DNA of 64,000 nt from Onchocerca volvulus (Eukaryota; Nematoda; Chromadorea; Rhabditida; Onchocercidae). Shown in pieces: positions 5,773 to 59,491 of this stretch (position 1 is its first letter; the number at the start of each line of letters is the position of its first letter). Location: contig HG738139.1 of NCBI GenBank assembly GCA_000499405.2, positions 1,616,170 to 1,680,169 on the forward strand, in the 5' to 3' direction. The position numbers were made by a program, and so were the translations under genes. Under the pieces are notes generated by a model. That model had not been told where the DNA came from. It worked only from the letters and a program-made list of their open reading frames with translations, and ran no database searches.

Positions 5773-8700
5773 ATGTCCTCGGGAGAAACACTATCTCAAG
5801 CATTGAACAGGTCATCATCATTTGTTAATCATCATCAAATTTCGAACTTTCCACTATTTAATCAATTAACTCAACAACAACAACAACAGCAGCAGCAACA
5901 ACAACAACAACAACAACCACAACTACAACAACTTCATTATTTTCCTCATCATCACTATCATCCATTTCAACAACAACAACAACAATATCATCAACAATCA
6001 TCGACCATTACCGCTATTAATAGCCATAACAACAACGCCAACCATAACAATAACAATAACAGTAGTACATCACCGCAACAACGTATCAAGCTGAAACGTC
6101 AACGGCAACGTGTCGACGCTGGTGAACCACGTAATCCTTACCAGGTAACTCGATATACCTTAAAAGAGAAAAACCTTCATTTCAATTATTATTTCAAATT
6201 AGAAAGGTGGAAGAAAAACGAGAAGCATAAATTTTATCTTTTAATTATTGCAAAATAATTGAACGATGCGAAAACGGATTCTGATTTCCAGTACCAGGGA
6301 ATCATCAATTAAACCTCATACTATACATTCCGATGATTTCCTTTTCAAGGTATATTTTCGAGTTTTTCATATAATCGTCGATTTCAAAAGAAAAAAAAAT
6401 CAATTGATACTGTAACTGTTCAACATTGTATTCTTGTTGAAAATTTATATAAGAAGGAAGTCTACGGTAAGAATTATTTTTGTAACAAATTTTAACATGA
6501 ATAAAAAAAAATATTTATTTATTACATGTAAAAAATAATGTGCTATTGTTTAAAAAAAGAAAGTAAATTTTATAGGCAACACGTATACCGATGCTTCAAC
6601 ATCATCAACAACAACAACATCAACAACATCAACATCAACATCAACAACAACAACAACAACAACAACGATATACGAATAATTTTCAGCTTAGCAATGTTAT
6701 TAATAAAAATAATAATAATGATGCATATATAACAGCAACAACAACAACAACGGCTCAAAATAGCAACATTAATGCAACTTTAAGTAGTATCTTTCCTTGG
6801 ATAACAACTACGATACCAATAACAACAATAGCAACAACAACAACAACAGCAACAATAACAACAGCAACAACAACAACAAAAACAATGACACAAAGATTTG
6901 AATCATCATTTAATATCATGGAACAAATTAATGATACGGATGATTCAATTCAAGATCTTAGTCAACAACGAGAAATAATTAACGATGATGAACATCAGGT
7001 ACATTTAAAATTATTATTGTTGTTGCTTTTTTTTTTTGTTTGTATAAACATATTTCTAATTAGAATTTCTATTTACAATAATCCTTACTATTTATTTGTC
7101 AACTTGTCTTTTTTGCAATAATCAGTTCTTATCGATTTATTAGTTCATTTATTCAGATATTTTTAATTATAGAATTATTTGTTTGTTTCTTTTCTTCTCT
7201 TTTTTTTCCCTCCATTTTTGCGAAAATATTTTGCAATCCAATAATCTTATTCTTCTACTACCGTAGAGCAAAGATTTAACAACAATAGCAGAGAAATCAC
7301 AAAACATATTTCAGATTAAAATCAAAATCTGCTTTTCTTTTTTTACAATATTTTTGTAAACAACTTCTTTCATGCGACCTTTTTTCTTTTTTTTATTATT
7401 TTATTCCGATTCTCATTGATGATTGGATAAAAAGAAGGGAAAGGTGGAGTTTTTGATTTCATTATTCATATTTTGAATTTCAAATTCTTTTGTATTTTCT
7501 TTTCCTTTTTTCTTCTATTTTTTTTGTTCGAAAAATTAAATTCTTATTTTGTAATTTTTTAATAGTATTAATCATCTATTGAAAAAGTTATTTTTTTTTG
7601 TTCATTATTGTTCAAAGTTTTTAATAGAATTATTATTATTTTCATTTTTTATTAGATAAATAATTTTTTTTATCTAAAGATTTTTAAAATATCATTTTCG
7701 CTTTTTTATGAAATAAATTAAAAATAATATGTTAAATTTTAGTTTTTTAAATTTCTCACTAAATGCATGGTTTGCTACTTATTTATGAATTTTTTGATAT
7801 TTCAGGAATTTCTAACCTCAACGAATCTACAATCATCGATGACAGATATGAATGATACTAACCTCAACGAATCTACAATCATCGATGACAGATATGAATG
7901 ATAATGCTAAAGATAACGATTGCAAGGATGAAACATTAACAACAGTAATTAATCCAACTAATGATGGTGATGATGATGATGTTGATGATGATGAAGTAAT
8001 TACAATGACCATTGATGATCAATCATATGGGTTAAATGTTGATGATGATGATAAAATTGATAATGATGATGAAACAACATCAAATTTAAAAGTTCGTTTA
8101 ATTTTAAACTTCTTATTCACTAATTTTGTTCATTAATCCGTTCAGTCATTCATATTTATTATTCAAATGTTCAAAAAATAAAAAACTAAATCGGAATTGT
8201 GAACATATATGCACAATGATAAACAAAATAAGCAAATTATTAAAAAAGAACATGTAAAATAACAGTAATTGATGGAAATAGTGAAAATTAAAATTTTTAG
8301 TAATTAATTAATTAATTTTTTAATAGGAAGAACATAGTCTGAGTGACACAAGTCCTACACCAAGCGCATCATTTACCGGTGCAGGTGGCAGCAGTTCATC
8401 AAGGCGGAAAAATGCTGCACCACAACGGCAACCGGTTGATATCGATAATGAATGCAGTCCTCAAAATGGTATTGTTTGAATTAAATTTTTAAAATTTTAA
8501 AATTATTTTAAAACATTAAAAATACTTTAGAAAAAAGGAATTCCATATTTTTAATCGAATATTTATGAATAATGCTTTTTTATTTTTTTTTTTTTTAGAA
8601 CAAAACGAAGATTCATTGGAAGATGATAAAATGGCAAGTAAAACCAGTTTAGAAAAATCAGCTGAAATGAAAACGACTAATGAAACACCGAAAAATATTT

Positions 8701-11700
8701 TAGCAGCAAGTTTAGCTGCCAATATTAATCCACAAGTATATATTTATGCATAAATTTTGCAATAAAAATTAAATGGGAAAAAAGTGAATTTGAAACTGAA
8801 TTAATCAAATTAATAAAATGTCTATTATTTCGCAACTTTTTTTTTTCGATAAATTGAATAATTTTCATTTTATACTAAATTAAAATTACTAGTTTATTCG
8901 TTTTTGCCTTTTTTTCTTTCCTTTTACTTTTTTATCAATTGTTTTATTTTGCTGATAATATTTTTGCTTACAGAACAGGATACAAGAAATGATTGATATA
9001 CAAAAACGAATTTATTCGAATTGGATCGAACAGCAGAAAAAATTGTTAGGCGCAAATGATGAAGAACAAAAGCGAGCACAAATTCAACTTATACAACAAC
9101 AAATTCAACGAGATTATGCTAAGTTGGCACAATCATTAAAGCAAGAACTTATCAATGGATTGAATAGTAGCATTGATAAGGTATATCATAATCATAATTT
9201 ATGAAATACTATTTTCAAAATTTCATTTTCATAAGAATAAGATAGATTAAAAAAAAAAAAAAAAAATAGAAAGGACATAGAAAAATGAATAATACAATAA
9301 ATGTATATGATTTCGAATTTAATGAATATTATAAAGTAATATATAATTGAAGTTATTGATTTATACTGCCGATCCGATGTTTTAAATCAAAGTTTTGGAA
9401 AATCTAAAATTATTATTTCGATTCTCTGCTCCATTTAGGAATGAATATGGTATCACAAGGATTAATTCTTAATATTTTAATTAGCAGTTATTGGAAACAT
9501 TTAATTTCATCTGTAATCTTATAATCTTTCCTTTACTATTTTACTAATCTAACGTACGTCATTCACGATAAAATTGGTCATATGTTAGCAATTAGTTAAG
9601 CTACATGCTTATGCATAGCTATAAAATGAGATATACGTGCTGAGAGTGCAGCTAAAGTATGATTCATACTAATGTTTAAGCAGAATTAGAATTTACGAAC
9701 ATGTTTCGCGATAAAACATGTCATAAGTAAATTGTTTGCAATTGATTAAATTTCATCTTTTCCATTGCTTTATATCCTAATAATGAAACTCATGCATAGT
9801 TGCAATTTTGAACGATTAATTTCAGATCATAGCTGAATTTATAGCTGCGGAAGCGGCAAGCAGTGCGCGACGTACGACTGCGGCACTCGCGGAACAACAA
9901 CGTGAACAAGCAGCGGCCGTAGCAGTTAATCGAAATCCATTCCTCTTTCATCCCTTATATCATTCTTTCAACGGTCAATCTGGTCCTTTTCCAAATCCAT
10001 TTATGCAAAATAGCTTACCATTACCGCCACCACCACCACCACCACCATCACATCATTCGCCCGGTATTTTTCCGGCTGCTTCCGCACCTCGTACTACCTT
10101 CAATCCATTTGTACCGCATCTAAAAGCAGCATCACCAGCTACCGCAACATTTCGTAAAATAGATGATTTAAGGTTAAAAATATGCTTCGTTTGAAAATTT
10201 GAAATTTTTAGCCCGAAAATTTAATTTTAACTTAATTTATTTTACCTAAAATTTAGTAAGGTTTATGTTTTGTTTTTTTTTTAAAAAAAAAAAAGAAAAA
10301 TAGGAGCATTATATCTTTTGTTATTATTGTATTATTTATTAAAAATTTCCAAAAAATTTTTATAGCTCATTTGCACCACGAAAGAAACGCTCGAAAGTAA
10401 CAGATTCGTCACGAATAAATAAAGTTCAACCAATCGCTGCTATTCGTGAAGCATCTTCACTTCCTAATAGTGCTCGTTCTTCACCGCAGGTAAATATTTT
10501 TCTTTCGACCTTTTTGGAAATATAATACTTAAAAAGAAATAGGAAATTATTTTAGAGTTTTAAAATTCACGGTTTTAATTGTTTGCAAGAAATTATTACA
10601 AAAGATAATTAATTTATCAGCTCTAATTTAAGATATCGCCAAAATATCTCAATCATCTTTTAGCTATCATCATATTTTCCACCAACAATGGTTGGTCATC
10701 CGTTGTATGGTGGCGGTACCTTTGGTACCGATGATCGAGATAGTCCGATCAATTCGGATGATGCAAGCGATTGCGGACCTTATGATGGAAATATTGGTGG
10801 AAGGTTTGTTATGGCAATTATATCGATTATAATTAAGCAATAAAATTTCTCTGCTTTTCCGAAAATTTTTCGATTTTTTTCTATGAAATTTCATTTTTCT
10901 CACTAAATTGAATAAAATTTAAATTGAGAAAAAAAAGAAGCAAGCAAAAAATTAAAAATTTTCAGTTCAACTTTAACACCAATGCATTTGCGCAAAGCAA
11001 AATTGATGTTTTTTTATACACGTTATCCGAATTCGTCTTTATTGAAGTCTTATTTTCCGGATATTCGTTTCAACAAAAATAACACTGCACAACTCGTTAA
11101 ATGGTTCTCGAATTTCCGGTTTGTTGTAATTATTATTGTTATCATTATTGTTATTATTATTATCATTATTATTATTATCAGTAGTAGTAGTATCGTTATG
11201 ATTATCATTATTATTATTAATTTTAATGGGAAAATTTCAATTTGGTCGAGTAATTTTTCTTTTTTTTCCGTCTTTTATTACTTTTTCTTCTTTTTTCCTT
11301 CTTTTGTTCCTTTTTTTCTTTTTTTTTTGAAATATCAAATTTGTAAAAAATGAAAAAAAGATAGATTAACGAATTTTTCGTTCGCAATCTTTTTTTAATT
11401 TTAATTTAACCATTTATCATCCATCAATTCATCTTGTTAATCTATAATATCTCATTTTATTTTTTTTTTCTTTCATCATCAATTTTCTTATCATTTATTA
11501 ATTTATGGTTTTCTTTTTGGTAAAATTTTTCATTTAAAATTTTTGTCATAATAATGATATGATAAATTTATGTTAAATTAGATATATTTTATTTGATTTT
11601 GAAATTTCAAACAGGAAAATACGATTTTAAGCTAACAAAATAAAGAATTAAATCTGTCAAACACAATTAAATGCAACAAATAAATATTATAATATACATT

Positions 11701-12371
11701 ATATCATATATATTTTGTAATTTTTTATTTTATTTCTTCATAAAGACCTAAAATTATAAAGAATAAATTAAGAATTGATCTACTGCCATGTATACAAATT
11801 ACATTTCATTCCAAAAATGACTTCATTTTTTATTTTTTTAATATTTTCAAATTTTTTCATTTTTTCATTTTCTTTATTATCCAGATCTGATTACAATTAC
11901 AGTATGGAATTTATGCAATCATTAATTACTACTCATGATAATGTTATAAATACATTACTGTAAACCGTTTGAAATATATAATTTATTTCTATTCCTATTA
12001 ATATCTGTTTATTTAAAAAAAAAAAAAAGAAAAAAGAAAAAAACTCCATAAAAATAAATTAGTGAATAAATTTTAGCAGTAAAATATAAATCTTTCTTTT
12101 TTCCATTTTCACATCATTTCTTTTATTATGTTCATAAAATAAAATAGTCAAAATGAAAATTAAAATGAAATAGTCATATTTGAAATAATCAAATTTCATT
12201 TTTCAATTGTTTTTTTATTTACTATTTGTTTTATAATAATTGAATCATAATTATCAAATTTGCTTGCTTACTATTTATTAACATTTATTATATTAATCGT
12301 TACGGTAAATTTACTACGGTATTACCACATCAAATCATTCATTCATTCATCTGCTAAACTATATCTTAGGT

Positions 12372-12440
<69 letters not shown>

Positions 12441-14463
12441 AAAGGAAAAATATTATTAATATATGTATTATTTATTTATCTCTAAATTTGAGTATTTGAT
12501 ATCTGGGGGGTGGGGGGGGGGGGGGGGGGGGGGAAAAAGATAGGCCAAAGGACAAGGACAGGTGTACGATAGAAACAGGTGCGTGCTTTTTGGAAGTTAA
12601 GTAGGAAAAATAGACGAAAATATTGGAATCATTGGATGGAACGGTAAAGATGGATCAAAATGTAAGGTCATCTAAAACCGGTAACTAATTTATAAACAAA
12701 TAATTGGCGCGTTCGTCCTGATCGTTCGAGATGGATGGAAATGTTTGTTTAAATTGTCCCCATTTTGCCTCAAATGTAATTTGACACTTGATTATCATAT
12801 AATTGATGATGATTAAGTGATGGATTGATGGAAAAAAAGAAAAGAATGAAAATGAGGATGAGAATTTGGTAATAATAATGATTGAAACGGGATGATGATG
12901 ATGATGATGATGATGAGGTCATATCAGGTCATCAATCTTCCAATCTCTCTCCCACCTCTATCCTATTACATTTGGAAAAGCTTATTTAACTGTATTTATA
13001 ATTCTGAAGGATTACTGTAATTCTGATTTTTTTTTTTTCATAAAATTAAATTCTCAAAAATTTCTTTAACAATGTTTTTTGAAAATTTGGTAAAAAGAAA
13101 ATAAAAAAAATATTTTATTTGCTTAATAACTGAAATATTATTATGGGAATTCAAATAAGAAATTTCTTTTTTAACTTTTTTCTTTTTCTATTTTTTTTTT
13201 TTAACATATATGTTTTAAAAATTTTTCATACTCAAAATTTTCATCCTGAAAGTTTTTGCTCATGCATATCAATATTCCTTTCTATTTCCTTAGATTTTTT
13301 TTTGTTTTTACTCATAAGTAAACGGATAGGTTAATCTAAATATTATTAATTTTGTATTAATTTGAAATTTATCCACATTTGCAAATTTCACTATTTGCTA
13401 TCAATTATTGCTCATTATTTTAGCTATAGCAAATCTAATTTCTTCCATTTTTTGTTCAGTTAAATAGTGAAAATTTTGAATTTAAAAATTAAAATAATGA
13501 AAACGAAAATCTGAAAAGTTTATGTTAATATTAATGATATATTTGAAATCAAAAAAGAAAAACTGTTTTTTATTAATTCTTTTTTCTGTTCTTTCTTTCA
13601 GAGAATTTTTTTACAATCAAATGGATAAATTTGCAAGAAATTACCTAGCTGAAGGGATCAAAAATAAGGAAGATATTATTGTTACACCTGAATCGGAAAT
13701 TTATAAAAGTCTCAATCAACACTATAATCGTAATAATCATATTCAGGTAAACTGATATTATTGTTTTGGAAATATTTTACAATTAATATTATTACGAAAA
13801 ATAATAATAGGAAATTAAAATTAGATGAAAGTATTATAATTATGATTAGTAATTAAATTATCTTTTTGAATGAGTAAGGAGAGATTTTTCGTGAGTAATT
13901 TTATAAAATAATTCTTTTATCGTTAAAAAATCCATTGTTAAATTATAATCAGTATCTTTCGGATAACTTGATAACTTGATGATTTGACTTTTTAAATTTG
14001 TATAAAATATTTTTTAAAAAATTTTGGTATACTTTCAATATTTTCTTTTATGTTTAGGAGAGAAACATTAAAAATTGCAAAAAAAAAAAGCGAAAGTTTT
14101 GAAAAAATTCCAAAAAGTTTGAAAATTGCAAAAAAATAAAAGTTGAAAAAAAAATTATATATTGTATTTCTATAGAATGCAATTCAAATGAAGAAAAAAG
14201 GGATCGATTTTAAAAGTTTTAAATATTTAAGTAATTAATTTTGAAATTTATAAATTGCAATAAAATTTATTAATTTGTAGCCACCGGAACGATTATCATT
14301 GGTGATACAGGAAACGTTACGTGAATTTTTCTGTGCTGTACAAAGTGGACGTGATGCGGAACCATCGTGGAAGAAGACAATTTATAAAGTAATTAATCGG
14401 ATGGATGATCCGATTCCGGATTACTTTAAAGATCCTAATTTTCTAGAACGTTTGGAGGGTTAA
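5773..14463 (+). CDS. pros-1: Prospero homeobox transcription factor (12 exons; exon 3 frame broken)
   Basis: Nuclear transcription factor of the Prospero/Prox family, which controls neural and glial fates. Exons: 5773-6144, 6576-6998, 7806-8091, 8327-8468, 8599-8735, 8974-9180, 9826-10172, 10366-10489, 10664-10803, 10966-11118, 13602-13746, 14281-14463. The last three exons encode the homeo-Prospero domain, roughly residues 711-868 of about 870: [42 protein letters not shown] short basic [14 protein letters not shown] motif ends exon 1 and RKKRSKVTD lies in exon 8. The N-terminus is rich in Gln, Asn, His and Thr repeats. The start is the ATG at 5773; upstream sequence is non-coding. All intron phases agree except inside exon 3, where an exact 46-bp tandem duplication shifts the frame and gives TGA at 7899-7901. 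The 870-residue length assumes one copy. Exon 3 lies between phase-0 introns, so skipping it would also restore the frame. Confidence 0.93.
5872..5993 (+). repeat. CAA/CAG repeat encoding polyglutamine in pros-1 exon 1
   Basis: Two glutamine runs, mostly CAA with a few CAG codons, separated by a His/Pro/Phe segment. They are part of the pros-1 reading frame. CAA/CAT runs (about 6600-6667) and ACA runs (about 6733-6885) follow in exon 2. Confidence 0.8.
7812..7903 (+). repeat. Exact 46-bp tandem duplication in pros-1 exon 3
   Basis: Copy 1 is 7812-7857 and copy 2 is 7858-7903, identical at all 46 positions. The unit begins ctaacctcaacg and ends gaatgata. It contains no GT, so it cannot be removed as an intron beginning inside it. 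Because 46 is not a multiple of 3, the frame entering from the acceptor at 7805 cannot reach the Asp-rich frame that leaves at the 8091 donor. With one copy the frame is continuous. Confidence 0.95.
12374..12438 (+). repeat. Poly(A) run of 65
   Basis: Uninterrupted run of 65 A inside pros-1 intron 10, followed by an A-rich gaaaagg tail. It could be an expanded homopolymer or the 3' end of an old retroposed copy. No gene-like body was recognised upstream. Confidence 0.9.
12505..12533 (+). repeat. Poly(G) tract (G6-T-G22)
   Basis: Six G, one T, then 22 G, in otherwise very AT-rich DNA. Four or more G triplets in a row can form a G-quadruplex. In C. elegans comparable G-tracts are unstable without the DOG-1/FANCJ helicase (established knowledge). 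Confidence 0.9.
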
Positions 14464-18317: not shown

Positions 18318-19319
18318 TCATTTGATAGGTTGAAGTTCAGTAACTGTTGAAGCTTCACTTGAAAATTCGCTACTAACTGTACGAGCTGTTGAACTCGTAT
18401 TATTATCGTTTTCAGCGTTGTTCTTATCACCACTGCTAATGTCAGTACTGTTATTTGATAACATTTTCGGATCGCTCTCGCTAGTTTTATGGCTGGAATT
18501 CTTCTTATGCGTTTCGGTTATCAAATTTCTATAATTTCCAAAAAAAGGAATTAAATTTAAAATTATTTCATTTTAATACTATATCATATAATTCAATTAT
18601 AATCAAAAATGAATTTTTTATAAATTAAAAAAATAAAAGAAAGGAAAAAAAAAAGGAAAAGACAACATTCAAATCGGTATTAGAGTAATAATTTATAATT
18701 TTAATCAAATAAATATTTACGAAAAATCAAATCAAAAAAAGAAAAAAAGAAAAAAGAAGAAATTTGCTAACTTTTCAAAATTTTTAGTCAAATTTCGAAC
18801 AGTTGATGGACCGGAAGTGTATTCACTTGTTGTTGCTGTCAGTGATGGTGCTAATTTGTCACTGCTGGCAGTAGAATAATCACTAATTTTGTCACTATCA
18901 TTATCACTTTTATCACTGCTGCTCAATTTTTGTGTTGAGTTTTGCTTTCTAAATTTTGTTGATAACCAATTATTATCTAACATCGAAATGTTGGCGGCGG
19001 TATTTTTGCCTGAAAATAAATGAAAGTATTTACATGCGATTTAATAAGCTAATAATTTAAGAAAAATAAATAATTAATAATAAATAATAATAAATAATAA
19101 TGAATAATAATAACAATAAATAATAACAATAAATAATAATAATAACTAATAATAATAATAAATAATAATAATAATAATTAATAACAATAATAATTAATAA
19201 TGATAATAATTAATAATGATAATAATTAATAATAATAATAATAATTAATAATTAATAATAATAATTAATAATTAATAATAATAATTAATAATTAATAATA
19301 ATAATTAATAATTAATAAT

Positions 19320-19381
<62 letters not shown>

Positions 19382-22252: not shown

Positions 22253-25131
22253 CTGTAAAATAAATTTTGCATTTAAATCAAATTTCTACTTATCAATTTT
22301 GTCATTTTACTTGATAAAATTCTTGTAAAAGTCGATATTTCAACATTTGTTAATTAAAATTTCCAGTTCGTAACTTCTGCGATAAAAAACAACCTTAAAA
22401 ATGTTTAATTATTACTTACATGCGCGATTAATTTAAACATTTTCAGCACTTTATTTAAAATTTCCTTAATTTATTAATACTTTTTAAGAATAAACTTCAA
22501 AAATTGAAATTAAAATCAATTAGATCATTTTTAATCAAAATTGAAATGCATGAACTATCCATGTGAAATTGTAAACCATTCGTAATTATTAAATTTGATT
22601 TCCATTGATTGAACATTCACTGAATCTGATATCATTTCGATAGATTCGATGAAAAATTCGAAACAAAATAAATTCTTCTCTTCAGACGACGACATTCGAT
22701 GAAATAGCATTTCGTGGAATTACACTTTCGTTGCTATGGAAGCGTAATAAGCGTGAAATTTTAACGATAGATAACGGGGCTGTATGAAATCGAAAAATAT
22801 CCAGAAAGTATGCGAAGTAATTTAGATTTGTTAATAATAGTAATATTAGTGATAAGAGCAATAATCAGTGGTAATAGTGATAATGATAATGATAATATTA
22901 ATAATAATAGTGCCAATAGCGATAATAATAATGGTGATAATAAATCATAATACTAATATTTACAATAGTAATAAGTAATGATAATAATAGCAATAATAAT
23001 GATAATATTACTTATATGAATATTGATAAGAATATGCATTCTGAAATGATTATTTTTTTTTATCATTTAAAAATTAGAATGATAAGATAACAGAGATGAT
23101 AAAATATGTTAACAAAATTTTCTGTCTACTTTCGGAAGATATGCTACGCCTACTTTGCATCGAAATATCGAAATAATTGTTTTAATTGAATTATCATTTT
23201 TTAATTTTGTCAAATTATTGCCTATTTATGATTGGCTGATCATAATTTATCAAATTTGTCATCTTTTATAAACTTAGCTCATCATTGTATGTCGTCTTTC
23301 CTACCACTATTAATATTAATTAATTAGCATTAATCTTAAAAAATTAATAATTCAATTAATGCTACAGAAAGTAAACTAAAACAAAAATAAAAAATAACAA
23401 TAATAGATGAAATGAATTCATGTGGAGAGATGTAAAATGATTTAATAAAATAAAAATTTGAAAAACAAAGTACAAATTACGCAAGAGAGAAAGAAAAAAA
23501 AATTAAGGTAAAAAAAAATAAGCAAAGAAAAAAAAAAGATTGGAGTTGATGATTTATTGGTAAAAAAAAGAAAAAAAAAAGTTGATAAAAATGATGAAAG
23601 TTGAAAAATAGGAAAGGAATGATTGATTTGTAGATTAAATTTGACAAACAGGTTTTTCGCCTTCTAAATTTAACGTCAACCCTTTTTGCTAGATAAAATG
23701 TCAAATTCTGTCAGAATGCACAACTTCATCATTAATTTTCAACACTTTCATGAAAAAATCATTTCCACTTTTCAATCTCTTTTACTCGTTCTTTTTTTTT
23801 TCTTTTTTTTTTTCTTTCTAAATTATTTTTTAAAATTGGCGGCGTTCGATACAACTTTTAAGACACTTTTATTTTTATTTTCTCACTTTCATTACTATAA
23901 TATGACGATTGAATATTGTTGACATGAATGATTATCAATTCTCGACATAATATTGGTTATCAATTATTACTATTATCAGAATAATATATTGAATTATTAT
24001 CATGATATCATTCATCATTCATTATCTTCTCGTTTTCTTTTTCACATAATTGATTTTAAACAAATATGACAATACTTTTGAGACGAAAATTTCGTTAAAA
24101 AAAATTTTTTTCTTTTGAGACGAAAATTTCGTTAAAAAAAATTTTTTTTTTCTCATCATTCATTCTAATATTAACAGTTATGCTGTAAATCCTTATCAAA
24201 AATATTAATGATAATTAATTAATTAACAAGATGTTAGAAGGCGAATTTATGCTACAAATTTGAAAATATGCTTTTAATTAGTACATTTTAGGTAAGAATA
24301 ATTGAATGGTGAAAATTTTAAGAAAAAAAAAAGATGTTCTGAAAAGCATCAAATTATTTTTAAAGCAATATATAGCAATAATTGTAAAATATTTCGTTCT
24401 ATTTTATTCCTCATTCAAATCTTCTGATATTATACTCATTTACAAATTAAAAATGAAAAGTTTATCTCTTTCAATTTATCATTACAGTTTGAAATATTAC
24501 ATAATCGTTATAATCAAGTCATTCAATACTATACCTGATAATACCATCAAATTGAAAGTATTGATGAGAAAAAGTTAAATTTAGGGAAAACAAAATTTAA
24601 AAATTGCATTTCATTAAAGATTCGAATATTATACGTATTTTAGTAAAAGAATGTCGAGCGATATTGAAGATAGAAGCTTAAAAAGCAAATGAAAAAAAAA
24701 AGAAATTAGATTTAAAAAGTCAAATTTTAATTAAAGTTTATATTCAAAAATATAATTATAGGATATGATTTGCTTTCTTTTCTGTTTCCAACAATCTTTA
24801 AGATTTTTTTGCTAAATACTTAAAATATTCGAAGTTTTAATGAAATATTCATCTTGCTAAAATTCTAAATATAGTTTTCAGGGATGCCAATTAGTATCAT
24901 TATTCTTTAATACGAAATAATTAATGTCGATTCTATTGTTACTATATTAGTGGAATTGAAATCATTTATACGATGTAAATTTATAGTTAAGATTTTTTTT
25001 TTTTTTTTTTTTGCTGTTCTTTATTTTTTGTTTCTTTTTTTTTTTAAGTAAAAAATTTGATTCCAATAATTTTTGAAATATAAATTTTTCAAATATTTCA
25101 GATTGAAATTTAAATTGACAAGTTTGCAATT
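22253..25131. other. Divergent upstream region
   Basis: Lies between the minus-strand unidentified gene and the plus-strand transporter. It contains a GAT/AAT-rich microsatellite (about 22838-23010), a 37-bp tandem duplication (24075-24148) and long T runs. A minus-strand open frame of 51 codons (22710-22555, starting MLFHRMSSSEEK) could be a 5' exon of the unidentified gene, but no donor with the needed phase was found. The tttcag at 25096-25101, 30 bp before the transporter ATG, is a possible trans-splice acceptor. Confidence 0.45.
24075..24148. repeat. 37-bp two-copy tandem duplication
   Basis: The unit starting cttttgagacgaaaatttcg occurs at 24075 and again at 24112, with the second copy's T run slightly longer. 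It contains the palindrome cgaaaatttcg. Confidence 0.85.
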
Positions 25132-28100: not shown

Positions 28101-31100
28101 AATTAATTTCTATATTACAAGAAAATTTTTAATTATCAACCAATTAGCTAATCATTGGGAATGAAATAATTTCAATAACGAAAATCCAATAAATATGATA
28201 AATGAAAAAAGTTGAATATTTTTTAAAATTCAAAATTCAAAATTCAAAAAAAAAAATCGATAAAAAAGCAAGACGTAGATCGTAGGGTATTGCGCGGTTG
28301 ATGATGACAATTATATGTTACCTGTTACCGGAATGGCGTTTAGCATCATTCGGAAATGCTTTAGCTGCTCTACCAGCTCTTCTTATTGTTATTTTCATTT
28401 TTCCGGAAAGTCCAATGTGGCTTCTTAGCAAGGTAAATTTTAATTAATTAATTATTGATTCTTTAGCAAGATAAATTTGATTAATTATTGACTTCTTAGC
28501 TAAGATGAATTTTAATTAATTAATTATTGATTCCTTAGCAAGATAAATTTGATTAATTTTTGATTTCCTAGACACGGTAAATTTAATTAATCACATTCAT
28601 TTTATACCTGTTTCATTTCCTCATCATTTTGAATGAATTAATTTGAAAATTTGATCAAATTAAAAAAGTTTTTTTCACTTTTTTTTTTCAATTTTTTAAT
28701 TTTTAAAAATTTATTAATTTTTCATTTCAAATTTTAGCGTAAAATTAAAAATTTTTTTTTACAGAATCGTATCGATGAAATGCGTGAAAATGAGAAAAAA
28801 ATAGCACGTATAGCTGGTATACCGTATATTGAAGTTGAGCATAAAATGATGGAAAAAAATAAACGTTTAATTGATTTTATTCGACAATCAAATTATGCTA
28901 AACGGTATATGCAAAGTTTTTTTTTTTTAAATTTATCGATAAAAACGAAAAATTTGAAAATTAAAAACAAAAAAAAAATCCAATCGATATAATATTAATA
29001 ATACTGCATAATTCAATTCATTTATACAGTTCTCGATGAATTTTTCAGAGTAATTTTTGTCAATATATAAAAAATTAAGGGTATTAGATTATTGATTGAC
29101 TTCGAAATAATGATAAGATTATTTAGTTTAAAGAAGAAAGATATGTAGATAAATTTCTCTTACTAGTAAGTTCTAATCGATTGTGATTCTCGATGTGATT
29201 AGCAAATTTCTAATTTATTTGCAATTACACATAAATTTTAAAAAAAAAAAAAAAAAAAAATCGATCCATACAAAGAAGAATTTTTAAATTCTCTTCAAAA
29301 TTTATTCTATTATTCCTTAAAAAAATACTTTTTTTTCTTTTTAAAACTTTTTCCCTCATTATCTACAAGCTATCTTTTTTCGTGAAAGTTTATTTTTAAC
29401 AATGTAACTTAAGTTAAACCAAGAAAAAAAAATTATTGAATTTTGGCATATATCTTAATCAATTTTAATTAAATATTATTATTTAAATTCTAATTATTAA
29501 CAATGATAATATATAGAAATGGAAAGCTTGAGAAAAAACTGGAAATATTTATATATTTGTCAAAATGTTGCCATCTAAGTCTTAATTAATTTATTTCACC
29601 TGTTCCAAATGAAGTTAGCCAACAATTTGATATTTCAGCACTAAAATATGGCTAAAATAAGTTAGCCAACAATTTGATATTTCAGCACTAAAATATGGCT
29701 AAAATAAGTTTAATTAATCTTAGATTTTTATTTTTCAAGCAATTCCTTGTGCAATAGAAAAAAAAAATCTCATAAGAACATAAACAAAAGATCGCAATTA
29801 ATTATTAGTTGGTTGAAAGTTCCGCTCGGAATTTATGACTGGTTGGTTGAAAATTTCGGCCAAAAATAATATTGATTGAAATTTGTAATCAAAATCTTGT
29901 AATTGATCGAAATTTGAAAGTCAACCAAAATTTGTTATTTATTTTAATAATCGATTAAAATTTGTAAGTAACCAGAAGTTTGAATCAAAATTTTGAAATT
30001 GATTGAAAGTAAGAACTAAAATTTATAACTGAAATATTTGATTGAAAATTTGTAATTAGTTGAAAATTTTTCAAAATTTGCAGTTAATAGTTTGAAAATT
30101 CTTTAAAGTTAAAATAATTTGAAGTTTTTTTTAAAGTTAATAGTTTGGAAATTTCGATCAAAATTTTACAAATTGCTTAAAAGTTATGGCCAAAATTTAT
30201 AAAATGAAATATTTGATTGAAATTCGTAAATTAGTTGAAAATCGGGATCAAAATTTATGATTAATTGAATGTTCCGATCAGGATGAATTACAATTCCTAT
30301 TTATCATTATTTAGATTATTTATTCTTTGGTTAATGTGGTTTACCGCATCATTATGTGGCTATGCAATTGATTTAAATTCATCACGCATAAGCGGTAATC
30401 TCTTCATTAATCAAGCATTATTTTCCATCCTTATTGCTGCTTCAAAGGTAATTTCGATTTCATATTTACATTTCCTATTTTATTCGTAAAATATTTTATC
30501 CTTCATCATTTTGTCTTTTTATAAATATTTCAATTTATTAAGAAATAAGAAAAAAATTTGTTGAAAAATAATGAAAAACACACAAATCACGCATAAAGTT
30601 TAAAAAAAAAAAAAAACGAAAAAACGAAAAAACGAAAAAACGAAAAAACGAAAAAAACGAAAAATTGAAAAAAAAAAACTTGAAATATTGAAAAGCTAAT
30701 TGCAATTTCTTTCTTTTTCTTTTTAGTTCAACAATTCATCGGGTACAATTTTATCAAACAAAGAACACAAAATTTTGAAAGAAAAAATCGAAAATAGAAC
30801 TAAAATTTGAAAACTTCAAAAACAATTAATTATTAAATGATAATTAATTGACAATACTTCCTTATTCTTCTACTTTCTTTATCATTTTCTAGATAGCAAT
30901 GGTTGTTTATGATACAGTTAATAAAAATTTCAATCGTCGTAAATTACATCAATATGCTCAATTAGCTGTTTGCATATGCTTTCTAACATTAACCATCCTT
31001 GTTTATTTTCAATATCAGGTAAACTTTTTAGATTTCTTCCGAAAATTTACTTTTTTCTTTTTAAACAATATTCTCTATTTTTCTCAAGATATTATCTAAA

Positions 31101-44990: not shown

Positions 44991-47900
44991 TTATACTTTA
45001 TTGAAAGCTACAATATCAACCGATTGTACTAAATCATCGAAAGCCATAATTTGCTCTTCCAACCAATCCGAAGACACTTTCTCATCTTCCACCACACAAC
45101 AGATCTGGAAAAATTAATTTTCTTTAAGCAGTGCTTAAATTCTAAATTACAAAAAATTTTAACTTTTATCAAAATTTATAATATACAGAAGTTAAATTTT
45201 TCAGAATTACCCAAACACTGTTATATACAGAAGTTAAATTTTTCAGAATTATCCAAACACTTTTAATATCATCAACAACATCGATATCATTATATCTAAT
45301 GTTCTAAATTTTGTCACCACCAAAAAAATTTTTTTCGTTTGTTTTCTTTTTCAGATAATCCTGTCATTAGCATAATTCAGACTATCAAGCTGCTATATAT
45401 TTTATTAAATGTTGTATATATCAGCATTATTTATTATCATTTTCTTTTGATTCTGTCTTATACGTCCTGAACAATAATCCAAATCTACAGTAGCTCTTTT
45501 CTTCGAAGTCATATTTGCAAATACTATAAAAAAAAAACGGAAACTAACAAGCACTCATCAATATATCACAACGAAACCGAGGATAAGTCCTACGACAAAA
45601 AATAATTAAACATACAACAAAAAAAAAAAAATATATATACTAAAAAACAAACTAGAAGTTAAATACCTAAAATAAATCAAACTACCATACTCCCCCCAAA
45701 ATAAAGCAGCAAAACCAATACTAGAGTACTCCACATTAAATCTTCGTATTAATCACTTTCACATTCAGAAAGATCAAAAGAAGCCCAATGAAAATCAACA
45801 AGACAAAAAAGGAAAAACAAAAACTAAAAGACAAACATTAACCCTTACTAAATAATAAAAAAAAAAAAAAAAAACCAACAAATAAAAAGAAAAAGCAATC
45901 TCATAAGTTTGCTTGCTCCAATAAAAGAATATTTTCTACCCCTAAAAACACCAGTAAAGCAAATACATACTTGAAGTTTTTTAATTCCATATGCAACAGG
46001 CAAAACTTTTGCTGCTCCCCAAACAAGTCCATCTAGTTCAATCGTCCTTATATTTTTCTCGATATCAGCTATTTCAATCGAATCATCCCATGGCTTTACA
46101 TCAAAAATGATGTTTGACTTGGCGATCGTAGCTGGCTTTTTCGCTTTTTTCTCTTCATATGCCTTCAAAATTTCGATTTAAGATATTTTATTATAATGAT
46201 TGTTCTGAAATAGCTGTAAAAATCAGCATTTTATAATTTCTTACATTGCTTCAAAAATATCTTTTTTTTCTGTTCTAAAAGGTATTTAACTTTTATGAAG
46301 GTTCTAAAAGGAAAATATTATTCCTTTGATCCGATTGTTACATTCACAGCTGTTTTCTGGCTAATCAAAAATAGATACCACCTTTATTATTTCAATGGGA
46401 CATCGTTCCTTAGTCCGATGAACTGCTATCAACTTGACAAAATATCTCGTAATTTTTTTCAGTTTACATTAAGGAATAGTCTAAAGATATCTTTAAAATG
46501 GAAATCATAATTAATCAACTCAGAACATTTTCCAGGAAGTTGCAATAGATAAGACTTAAAGATCACTACTCTTTTTAATTGTAATATCTCATTATGTCTG
46601 TTCATTTATGTTTATTATTTTGAAATGATCATATTCTGACTTCTAAATAAGTCACATTATAAGCCGATTTCTAGCAACTAACAATTAAAATAATGTAATA
46701 TAATCATATTGAGTTAATGCATATATATATATATATATCAAAATTTCGTGGGGATTTGGAAGGATAAATATATCTGTTTAAAAATTTCGAAACAGATATA
46801 GTGTCTCTCCAATTTTTCAGGAACTTTTAATATCACTGATTCGTTATTTCGTTGTGCAACATTTCAAATGACGATATCACATCGAAAAATCTCAAATATT
46901 TTTCAATTTATTCTTCTATCCTCTCACAGATCTCATTTATAAATACTGTAAGACAAAAAGCTATGTCAAGAATGAGACAATCAACACAAGCTTTTTCAAT
47001 ATAGTATTTGAGAATATTTAAAAACAAATAAAAGACTTGCCTTAAGCCGTGCAGCAGTTATGCGTGCTTTTTCTTCGTCATCTTCATCATCTGAACCAAA
47101 TAAATCAATGTCTTCATCGAGCTCTTTTTTTTCGAGATCCCCATCAGCAGAAGTCATCGGAGTAGGCCATCTAAACAAAAATTTCCAAAACTTTATTCGT
47201 CGCTCTTTTATCAAAAATCAATCAAACCTAACAATCAGTGATTTAATCGAGAAAGGGAATCATGTCATAATGGATAATGATCGTTTGCATCCTACGGCAA
47301 ACTTGTAACCAAACCAATAAAACATAGGAAGAAAAAAAGAACAACATAATATAAGCTATTTTACCATCCTAACTGAATCTCAAATAATTTCTCCATTAAA
47401 TATTTTAATCATATAAAATTTCCTCGGAACAAATTTAACAGTATAAAAGATTCAGGATGGCTTTCTTGTTATATTCTTTTAATGTAGAATTATTTTTAAG
47501 CGAATATATTAATTATCAAGCAATTATAAAATAAGAGGAAAGCAAAATTACGATTTTCGCTCTTCGTCGCTGAAACTTCCTATATTTCGGTACCAACGCA
47601 AAACATTAGCATATTTCGTTGCTGGTTCTGAAGTGAGCGATTTGAACAGCTGTACATCATCGCCAGATGGTGTGTATCTGAAAAGCATATTCCTACAACT
47701 GATTAGTCCCGATCAACACGAAAAACATGAAATGAAGTGGTTAATAATGATATTCGCATATACTACCACTTCTTCGAGAATACTTATCATTTCAAGCTGC
47801 TTCCGGTACCATCAATTCTTATTTCTCCTCTATTCTTTAAATCATAATTATCAACAGCAATGAAATCTCGCAATAAAATTGTACAAAGATAATGAAGTTA

Positions 47901-57200: not shown

Positions 57201-59491
57201 AATGGTACACGTTCCGTATATGCATAATTATCATTACTTAATGGGAAATGATTACCTGCAATATAGCAGTATATGGCAATAAGTATTTGCTAATATAAAA
57301 TGAAAAGGATCATATTGAAATAATTTTAGCCAACACTTTGAAAAAAAAAAAAAAAAAAATTGAGGAAATTAAATTTAATTAATACTTTGAAGAATTTTCA
57401 AAAAAAAAATTGCTTTTAACCAACATAAAAGAATTGAAATAATCCATAATAATTTGAACAAATTTTGAATAATCAAAGAATTTCAAGAATTAAAAAATAA
57501 TTTTAAAGTGCTAAAAAAATTTCTTACCAGCAATATTATGCGCAACACCGGCGAAAAATTCGAAAGTTTCCGCAGAATTTTCCATATCCCATCGTGATTC
57601 TTCAATTGGTTTACCACAATCAATTGTTTCCAAATATGCTAATTCATTTTTAACATCCTAAAATATTGATAGTGTGAAAATTCATGGGTATTTTTTTGAA
57701 AAATTAAATGATAGATTCAAATTATAGACTGTAATAATAGAGCCAAGCAGATGAAAGTATCAAGTTGAAACTTGAGGCCAAGATAACTAGTCTAAGTATA
57801 AAGAAAGATGATTGCTTGGAAGTAAAATGGAATAAACATAAAATTATTCATATTTTTACTAACATTGCAATGTTAACACATAAAATCTGGAAAAATTTTA
57901 GTGATATCTTAGATAATTGGTACCACAAAAAAAAAGAAAAAAAAAGGAGATAACGAACATACACGTATGATAGAAGCTGCTTTCCGTAAAATTGTTCCAC
58001 GTTTTTGAGCATTTAAGGTTGCCCAAGATTGTTGTGCTTTATCAGCATCCTTAATCACTTCATCAATCACTTCGGTATCAGCACAACCACACTGCGTTAA
58101 TATCTCACCTGGAAATATTTTTTTGTAACTGAAATTGAGAAAAAAAAACGAATAATCTATGTTGTTATAATTTTCACTTTTTTTTCGTTCATTTTTATTT
58201 TTCTTTATCTTTATTAATTTTATTCTATTCATTTTCAAAAAAGTGAAATTTGAAAAAAAAACCCCCAAAAATTTCCAAAAAAGAATGAAAATTTTTTGAA
58301 AAATAAAATTAATCACCGTTGCTTTTTCTAATGATCATGTATAAATGGTTTGCAATTATAATTATTTATTAATTATCCCTTCTTTTGATCCAAAACATTT
58401 TATTTAATATTAATTAGCTTCAGTTGATAGCAATATAATATACTTTGGTATATAATTATATCAAATGAAAATTCCTTTAAGAAAAATCAAAATTGAAATT
58501 ATTTTTGAAGAAAAAGTAAAATCTTATTTCGTTAACCAAGTTTTTACAAAATAATACCTGAACTAAATTATATGATTATTGCAATTATCTCACAAAAGTA
58601 AATGAGTAAATAAATAGATAAATGAAACAAATAAAAAGACAAAGAAAATGATTTATAAAAATTATAACAACAAAGATGATCAGTAAATTCAGCAAGATGT
58701 ACAAAAATATTAAAGAGATTTAATTACAAAATTAAAAATTTCTAATGAAAGTTAAATTCTTGAAAGGAAATTTGCTAACCATTTCTTGGTTGATATACGT
58801 CGAAATATTTTGTTGCCGTAAGTGCTACACGTGAACCACGTATGAAATGTAACGCTTTATCGATAGTCTTCGGAACGGTGAATTTTATCAACGGCATACA
58901 AAATCTGGCGAAATGTAGTTTCAAATATTTCGAATGAATTAATTTAGCAGGATGTGAACCTGATATACCTTGTGGTACCGATAATGATCGCTTTCGATAA
59001 TATTCCTCCCAAAAGGGTAAAAGTTTTCCATTTGAATCGTTGAAATTTAACTGATGAGATGGACAGAAATCATGAATACCAGCTGCTTCATATGATTTCA
59101 TCACTAATTGACAACAATAGAAGGCTTCATTACCTTCAGAATCACACATGTTAGACGAGAAAATATCGTTGTAATTTGAGCCCATTTTAGATTTTGCCCA
59201 TTGAGTTGCACTGATACGGACTATTTGTGGTACTTGAGCTCGATAGATCTCGAAACTTTCAGGTTGCAACTTTTCTACTACATTCATCAATGATTCTTGG
59301 CAAACGCCAGATTCTTGGGTTGCATGAATCAACCACTGACCCGTATCATCGTATAATAATGCTGTATGTACTACAGCTTCTGAAGCAACAGCAGCAACTG
59401 CTTCGTCAAAAGTTTCCGCACCATTTCTGTTAAAACCTTTTTTGAAGAATACAACATCTCCAATACCAATATCGATTCCTTTCAGAAACAT
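54265..59491 (-). CDS. alh-9: YiiX/C92-type papain-fold domain fused to ALDH9-type aldehyde dehydrogenase, 10 exons
   Basis: Two-domain enzyme. Exons: 59491-58780, 58108-57963, 57657-57528, 57255-57011, 56327-56104, 55811-55613, 55409-55245, 55101-55043, 54963-54887, 54401-54265. All join in phase: 697 residues. Residues about 1-210 resemble permuted papain-like amidases (YaeF/YiiX, peptidase C92): GDVVFF at 11-16, putative catalytic His42 (VVHTALLY) and Cys126 (EAFYCCQLV). Residues about 222-697 are an aldehyde dehydrogenase closest to ALDH9 (4-trimethylaminobutyraldehyde/betaine aldehyde dehydrogenase): [12 protein letters not shown] (431-438), catalytic Glu457 (TLELGG) and Cys491 (GAVCSNATK), spaced 34 residues apart as in ALDH9, then EEIFGAA and [13 protein letters not shown]. 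The first ALDH strand ([11 protein letters not shown]) is encoded in the same exon as the papain-like domain. Introns after 57011 and 55043 have GC donors. The symbol is by similarity only. Confidence 0.92.

What the first reader, a model, noticed from the sequence alone, without database searches (positions are those of the whole stretch)
7806..8091. Exact 46-bp tandem duplication breaks the reading frame of the Prospero gene
Seen: two identical 46-bp copies (7812-7857, 7858-7903) in exon 3. With both, the frame from the exon 2/3 junction ends at TGA 7899-7901, about residue 296 of a protein whose DNA-binding domain is C-terminal. With one copy the frame is continuous through the Asp-rich part and the rest of the gene. 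Known: Prospero proteins are essential regulators, so a fixed null is unlikely. Inference: an assembly error, a heterozygous or recent insertion, or tolerance through skipping of exon 3, which sits between phase-0 introns.
Basis: partly seen in the sequence, partly recalled or inferred. Interest (0 to 1): 0.75.

Follow-up and report, generated by a model that had tools for sequence, protein, structure and literature searches.

The report
Doubtful 46-base repeat in Prospero gene
In a genome that appears to be that of the river-blindness worm, a 46-base stretch is written twice in a row inside a developmental control gene and breaks its reading frame; a sister species has it once, so this is more likely an assembly slip or a stray gene copy than a truly dead gene.

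Summary
Window 7812-7857 and 7858-7903 are identical 46-bp copies in exon 3 of the only Prospero (PF05044) gene found in the genome. As assembled, the frame ends at TGA 7899-7901 after residue 296; exons 4-12 are open and encode an intact Homeo-prospero domain. Contig lengths fit the 2016 Onchocerca volvulus assembly. The closest protein, from the sister species O. ochengi, reads through exon 3 with one copy (80 codons; the window's exon is 80 codons plus 46 nt) and differs at 5 of 494 other compared residues. No second lesion was found, which argues against a long-standing null. The published pipeline is short-read (Velvet, SSPACE, Gapfiller, IMAGE) from one adult female, a setting in which an unmerged contig overlap could leave an exact, blunt repeat. 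I rate artefact about 0.5, a real heterozygous or rare allele about 0.3, and a real common allele tolerated by skipping phase-neutral exon 3 about 0.12. A test for one recurring overlap length failed, and no reads could be examined, so artefact and allele are not separated here. Interest is low.

The parts
5773..6144 (+). Prospero exon 1 (124 codons), ends in [14 protein letters not shown]
   Evidence: [11 protein letters not shown] is present in 7 of the 9 aligned relatives, the other 2 (P0001, P0002) lacking the N-terminus
6576..6998 (+). exon 2 (141 codons), ends in phase 0
7806..8091 (+). exon 3 with the duplication, 286 nt (240+46), phase-0 boundaries, acidic segment
   Evidence: O. ochengi exon-3 part is 80 residues
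7812..7857 (+). first 46-bp copy
7858..7903 (+). second 46-bp copy, identical
7899..7901 (+). premature TGA in the frame coming from exon 2, after residue 296
7852..8136 (+). ORF from an ATG just before the second copy, in frame with the rest of exon 3; runs past the exon end into the intron
8327..8468 (+). exon 4
8599..8735 (+). exon 5
8974..9180 (+). exon 6
9826..10172 (+). exon 7
10366..10489 (+). exon 8
10664..10803 (+). exon 9
10966..11118 (+). exon 10, start of the Homeo-prospero domain
13602..13746 (+). exon 11, Homeo-prospero domain
14281..14463 (+). exon 12, end of the Homeo-prospero domain and stop codon

Best explanation
The second 46-bp copy is most likely an error of the reference assembly: two neighbouring short-read contigs, or a gap-closing extension, ended in the same 46 bases and were joined without merging the overlap. 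The gene in the living worm would then have one copy, as in O. ochengi, and make an ordinary Prospero protein. Shown: the exact blunt duplication, the frame break, the intact remainder of the gene, and one copy in the sister species' protein. Inferred: that the assembly is the published O. volvulus one (from contig sizes and protein similarity), and that this junction was such a join.
For: O. ochengi has one copy and an open frame; its exon-3 part differs from the window at 2 of 78 residues and exons 4-10 at 3 of 416. Exons 4-12 are open, and all 11 introns are GT-AG; the Homeo-prospero domain is complete at 258.4 bits. No other PF05044 gene was found, so no paralogue is known that could cover a loss. 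Contig sizes fit the O. volvulus assembly, made from one adult female by SGA, Velvet (k chosen among odd values from 41 to 81), SSPACE, Gapfiller and IMAGE; 46 is a possible k-1. The boundary has no microhomology. Among isolated two-copy repeats of period 30-120 in 314 kb, 4 are perfect (the finding included) and 2 imperfect, which fits artefacts or very recent events.
Against: No reads were seen. The other exact duplications sampled have periods 37, 47, 63 and 97, so there is no common k-1 length; those of 47, 63 and 97 carry 5, 8 and 3 bases of spill, as real duplications can. The single-copy state rests on one sister-species protein, from an assembly made by nearly the same pipeline. Real duplications under 100 bp are a known repair product (PMC8355091, passages). 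The assembly was manually finished and checked with ICORN2 and REAPR.
Confidence: 0.5

Rival explanations
1. A real small tandem duplication carried by the sequenced female on one chromosome or rare in the population: a recessive frameshift allele, made by fill-in and end joining of a staggered break, that the assembler happened to choose.
For: The libraries came from one adult female. Small tandem duplications under 100 bp arise at staggered breaks, and in wild-type cells they show microhomology less often than those made by theta-mediated joining (PMC8355091, passages). Perfect identity and an otherwise intact gene fit a recent event.
Against: No second copy of the locus was found in the assembly: the full-length match is at one place only. 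No population data could be examined.
Confidence: 0.3
2. A real, common or fixed duplication that the worm tolerates: exon 3 is skipped (exon 2 joined to exon 4 in frame), or a weak internal acceptor before 7927 is used, or translation starts at 7852 or a later in-frame ATG, giving a Prospero that lacks part of the acidic segment or the N-terminus but keeps the DNA-binding domain.
For: Joining exon 2 to exon 4 leaves an open frame of 790 residues. The AG at 7925-7926 keeps the frame and leaves the rest of exon 3 open. The region of exon 3 is acidic and poorly conserved in the alignment of 9 nematode proteins (by eye).
Against: O. ochengi keeps exon 3 as 80 coding codons, 2 of 78 compared differing. 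P0002, a relative's ORF of 1689 nt in a 1767-nt contig and so probably a transcript, includes the end of exon 3 joined to exon 4. The internal acceptor ends in AAG, whereas 11 of 11 modelled acceptors end in CAG or TAG.
Confidence: 0.12
3. A true loss: Prospero is fixed as a null in this species.
For: Frame break in the assembly and no paralogue found.
Against: No second disabling change in the 12 modelled exons and a complete domain; only 5 of 494 compared residues differ from O. ochengi. In C. elegans pros-1 is needed for amphid structure and function and for I3 neuron identity (PMC12675366, PMC8989417, passages).
Confidence: 0.03

Closest known systems
Prospero / Prox homeodomain family, nematode pros-1 (ceh-26)
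   Same: Complete Homeo-prospero domain (PF05044), N-terminal [11 protein letters not shown] motif, acidic linker; one gene found in the genome.
   Different: Exon 3 carries a 46-bp duplication that breaks the frame in this assembly.
Unmerged-overlap duplications in short-read assemblies (recalled as an error type; no paper read for it here)
   Same: Exact, blunt, two copies, short.
   Different: No common overlap length was found in the 314-kb sample; reads not seen.
Small tandem duplications from end joining of staggered breaks (PMC8355091, passages)
   Same: Under 100 bp, two copies, no microhomology.
   Different: The passages seen concern human and mouse cells; nothing here shows that the duplication exists in a worm.

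Membership tests
Prospero / HPD family | Homeo-prospero domain | tested here: met
   PF05044, 258.4 bits, profile 1-153 of 154
Prospero / HPD family | similarity to nematode Prospero beyond the domain | tested here: met
   Best hits of exons 3-12: O. ochengi 99% over 82% of the query, an unnamed relative 88% over 88%, Ascaris 65% over 94%; exon 1 motif shared
Assembly artefact from an unmerged overlap | exact copies with blunt ends | tested here: met
   46 of 46 identical, run exactly 46; a real duplication can look the same
Assembly artefact from an unmerged overlap | one overlap length (k-1) recurring across the assembly | tested here: not met
   Periods 37, 46, 47, 63, 97 in 314 kb; gap-closer joins need not share one length, so this weighs against the k-1 form only
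Assembly artefact from an unmerged overlap | reads support one copy | not testable with these tools
   no reads available
Pseudogene | further disabling changes or relaxed constraint | tested here: not met
   exons 1-2 open, exons 4-12 open, 5 of 494 residues differ from O. ochengi
Small tandem duplication allele | both copies present in DNA of at least one worm | not testable with these tools
   no reads available

The most novel reading that the evidence does not exclude
The duplication is real and common in O. volvulus, and the species makes all its Prospero without exon 3 or from an internal start, so that a marked difference from the cattle parasite O. ochengi is a lost acidic or N-terminal part of a conserved developmental regulator.
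Probability: 0.08. Interest if true: 0.5.

Novelty: not a real feature. Interest (0 to 1): 0.15.

Why it matters
If it is an assembly slip, the reference sequence of a key developmental regulator in a human parasite is wrong, and looking at existing reads would show it. If it is real, it is a natural loss-of-function or isoform-restricting allele of a gene for which no paralogue was found in this genome. Either way, existing reads should settle it.

Tried and rejected
Chance repeat: rejected (about 2e-19 expected).

Removal of the extra copy by splicing: rejected, as the two-copy block holds no GT or GC. Use of an AG within the block (two, at 7844 and 7890): rejected, as only the first gives the right frame and it meets a stop at once.

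A second haplotype or paralogous copy in the assembly: not found. The 312-base query (7780-8091) had 48 matches; 1 is itself, and the other 47, at 70-97% identity, lie in 7898-8084, largely the GAT-rich part after the duplication. PF05044 gave three matches, all exons of this gene. Both searches score only their best candidates.

Search for exon-3 alleles among short predicted proteins (window:7852-8136): no candidate. Search with the 296-residue truncated product: none of the 7973 scored candidates passed, so no annotated truncated protein was found, and no N-terminal relative either. Exact 46-mer in viral contigs: none, as expected.

Literature (listings only): Onchocerca with Prospero, 20 of 47 papers listed, by title none about this gene; gap-closing errors, 2 of 2; O. 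volvulus genome and indels, 12 of 24,029. None of the rows seen is about this locus. The other searches served for the assembly, for pros-1 and for duplication mechanisms.

Perfect identity is not proof of recent age: at a copy divergence of 2% a 46-bp pair would still be identical about 40% of the time (my arithmetic; the real divergence was not measured).

Full report
The finding is real as a feature of the assembly. The two copies at 7812-7857 and 7858-7903 are identical in all 46 bases, and the period-46 identity stops exactly at 46, so there is no shared base beyond the unit on either side. Chance is excluded (about 2e-19 expected in the window).

The gene is Prospero. I modelled 12 exons from 5773 to 14463, with 11 of 11 introns GT-AG. 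The O. ochengi protein record begins with the residues encoded at 7806, in that phase. The C-terminal exons encode a complete Homeo-prospero domain (PF05044, 258.4 bits). A search of the whole genome with that family finds three matches, all exons of this gene, so no paralogue was found.

As assembled, translation stops at TGA 7899-7901 after residue 296. The frame used by the rest of exon 3 has stops at 7813, 7840 and 7849 and is open from 7852. Exons 4-12 then run open to the normal stop.

The genome is very probably the 2016 Onchocerca volvulus assembly. The five contigs whose lengths were shown are 2,816,604; 28,345,163; 25,485,961; 16,639,409 and 16,048,563 bases. The paper (PMC5310847; passages and section 18 read) gives four large scaffolds of 16-31 Mb, an X scaffold of 25.5 Mb, and two late joins among six superscaffolds; the sizes here fit the state before those joins (2.8 + 28.3 Mb against 31 Mb). 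The total here is 94.7 Mb against 97 Mb in the paper. The closest protein is from Onchocerca ochengi, 99% over 82% of the query. The species name is an inference from these.

The sister species gives the direction. The O. ochengi protein has 80 residues for exon 3, one copy of the repeated segment and an open frame; the window exon is 286 nt, which is 80 codons plus 46. Exon 3 differs at 2 of 78 compared residues and exons 4-10 at 3 of 416. The O. ochengi record lacks exons 1-2 and ends in exon 10, so the rest was not compared. This is one sequence, compared at protein level, from an assembly made by nearly the same pipeline. The other close relative, P0002, starts after the duplicated segment.

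A long-standing null is unlikely: no other lesion was found in the modelled exons, and the compared protein is nearly identical to that of O. ochengi. In C. elegans pros-1 loss disturbs the amphid and the I3 neuron (PMC12675366 and PMC8989417, passages only). That nulls die as larvae is recalled, not checked.

What remains is artefact or allele. The libraries came from one adult female; the assembly used short reads with SGA, Velvet with k chosen among odd values from 41 to 81, SSPACE, Gapfiller and IMAGE, then manual finishing, ICORN2 and REAPR. A false copy of a contig end is plausible in such a pipeline (recalled as an error type), and 46 is k-1 for k=47; the k used is not given in that section.

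To test for a common overlap length I took 250 kb from elsewhere in the genome, 20 stretches spaced on C2 and 5 others on C3 and C4, plus the window: 314 kb in 26 stretches. Exact tandem pairs of period 30-120 occur at 5 places, with periods 37, 46, 47, 63 and 97 (units of complexity below 0.5 were not listed; these 5 are at 0.65 or more). Three of the 5 are in the window, which was chosen for this finding, so outside it the rate is 2 in 250 kb. There is no recurring period, which is a result against the k-1 form of the artefact. Spill beyond the unit is 0, 0, 5, 8 and 3 bases for periods 37, 46, 47, 63 and 97; the 63 one belongs to a longer array. Isolated imperfect pairs of period 30 or more, at 85% identity or more and without gaps, number 2 (36 at 88.9%, 42 at 95.2%) against 4 perfect. 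This fits either artefacts or recent polymorphism. The numbers are small and do not decide.

In the protein search none of the 120 rows shown, of 739 hits, names O. volvulus in the part of the name that is printed. Many rows have no name, and only lengths of about 0.55 to 1.75 times 603 residues were eligible. This would fit a gene model spoiled by the frame break, but it is weak evidence.

Tolerance remains possible. Skipping exon 3 leaves an open frame of 790 residues; a weak AG before 7927 would also keep the frame, though it ends in AAG where 11 of 11 modelled acceptors end in CAG or TAG. Against this, O. ochengi keeps exon 3 coding, and a relative's probable transcript (P0002) includes the end of exon 3 joined to exon 4.

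Verdict: observation confirmed; artefact 0.5, heterozygous or rare allele 0.3, tolerated common allele 0.12, fixed null 0.03, with the remainder for causes not thought of. The label 'not a real feature' follows the single most likely reading and is held with that confidence only.

Noticed in passing
window 24075-24148: Exact two-copy tandem repeat, 37-bp unit, no spill; same type as the finding but with a simpler unit.
   Followed up: partly
window 29607-29710: Near-exact tandem repeat of a 47-bp unit, with an exact identity run of 52 bases from 29612.
   Followed up: partly
window 45181-45265: Two-copy repeat of 42 bp, 95% identical.
   Followed up: partly
L022 7789-7985: Exact two-copy tandem repeat of 97 bp with 3 bases of spill, elsewhere in the genome.
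   Followed up: no
L017 about 2249-2788: Repeats with a 63-bp (21-codon) period, neighbouring copies 90-100% alike.
   Followed up: no
window 11885-11963: A short open stretch after an AG that could serve, in phase, as an alternative last exon after exon 10; it would cut the Homeo-prospero domain short.
   Followed up: no
window 12374-12443 and 12505-12533: Long runs of A and of G in the intron between exons 10 and 11.
   Followed up: no
window 19050-19380: A 331-base TAA-type microsatellite.
   Followed up: no
window 58775-59491 (-), 57909-58316 (-), 45848-46168 (-): Other coding matches over the Pfam cut-off among the 10 ORFs scanned: Peptidase_C92, aldehyde dehydrogenase and EF1_GNE.
   Followed up: no
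L034 1-200 (C4:1000000-1000199) and L039 542 (C4:9000541): A stretch of N only, and a single N; they may mark scaffold joins, though the tool says that withheld stretches also read N.
   Followed up: partly
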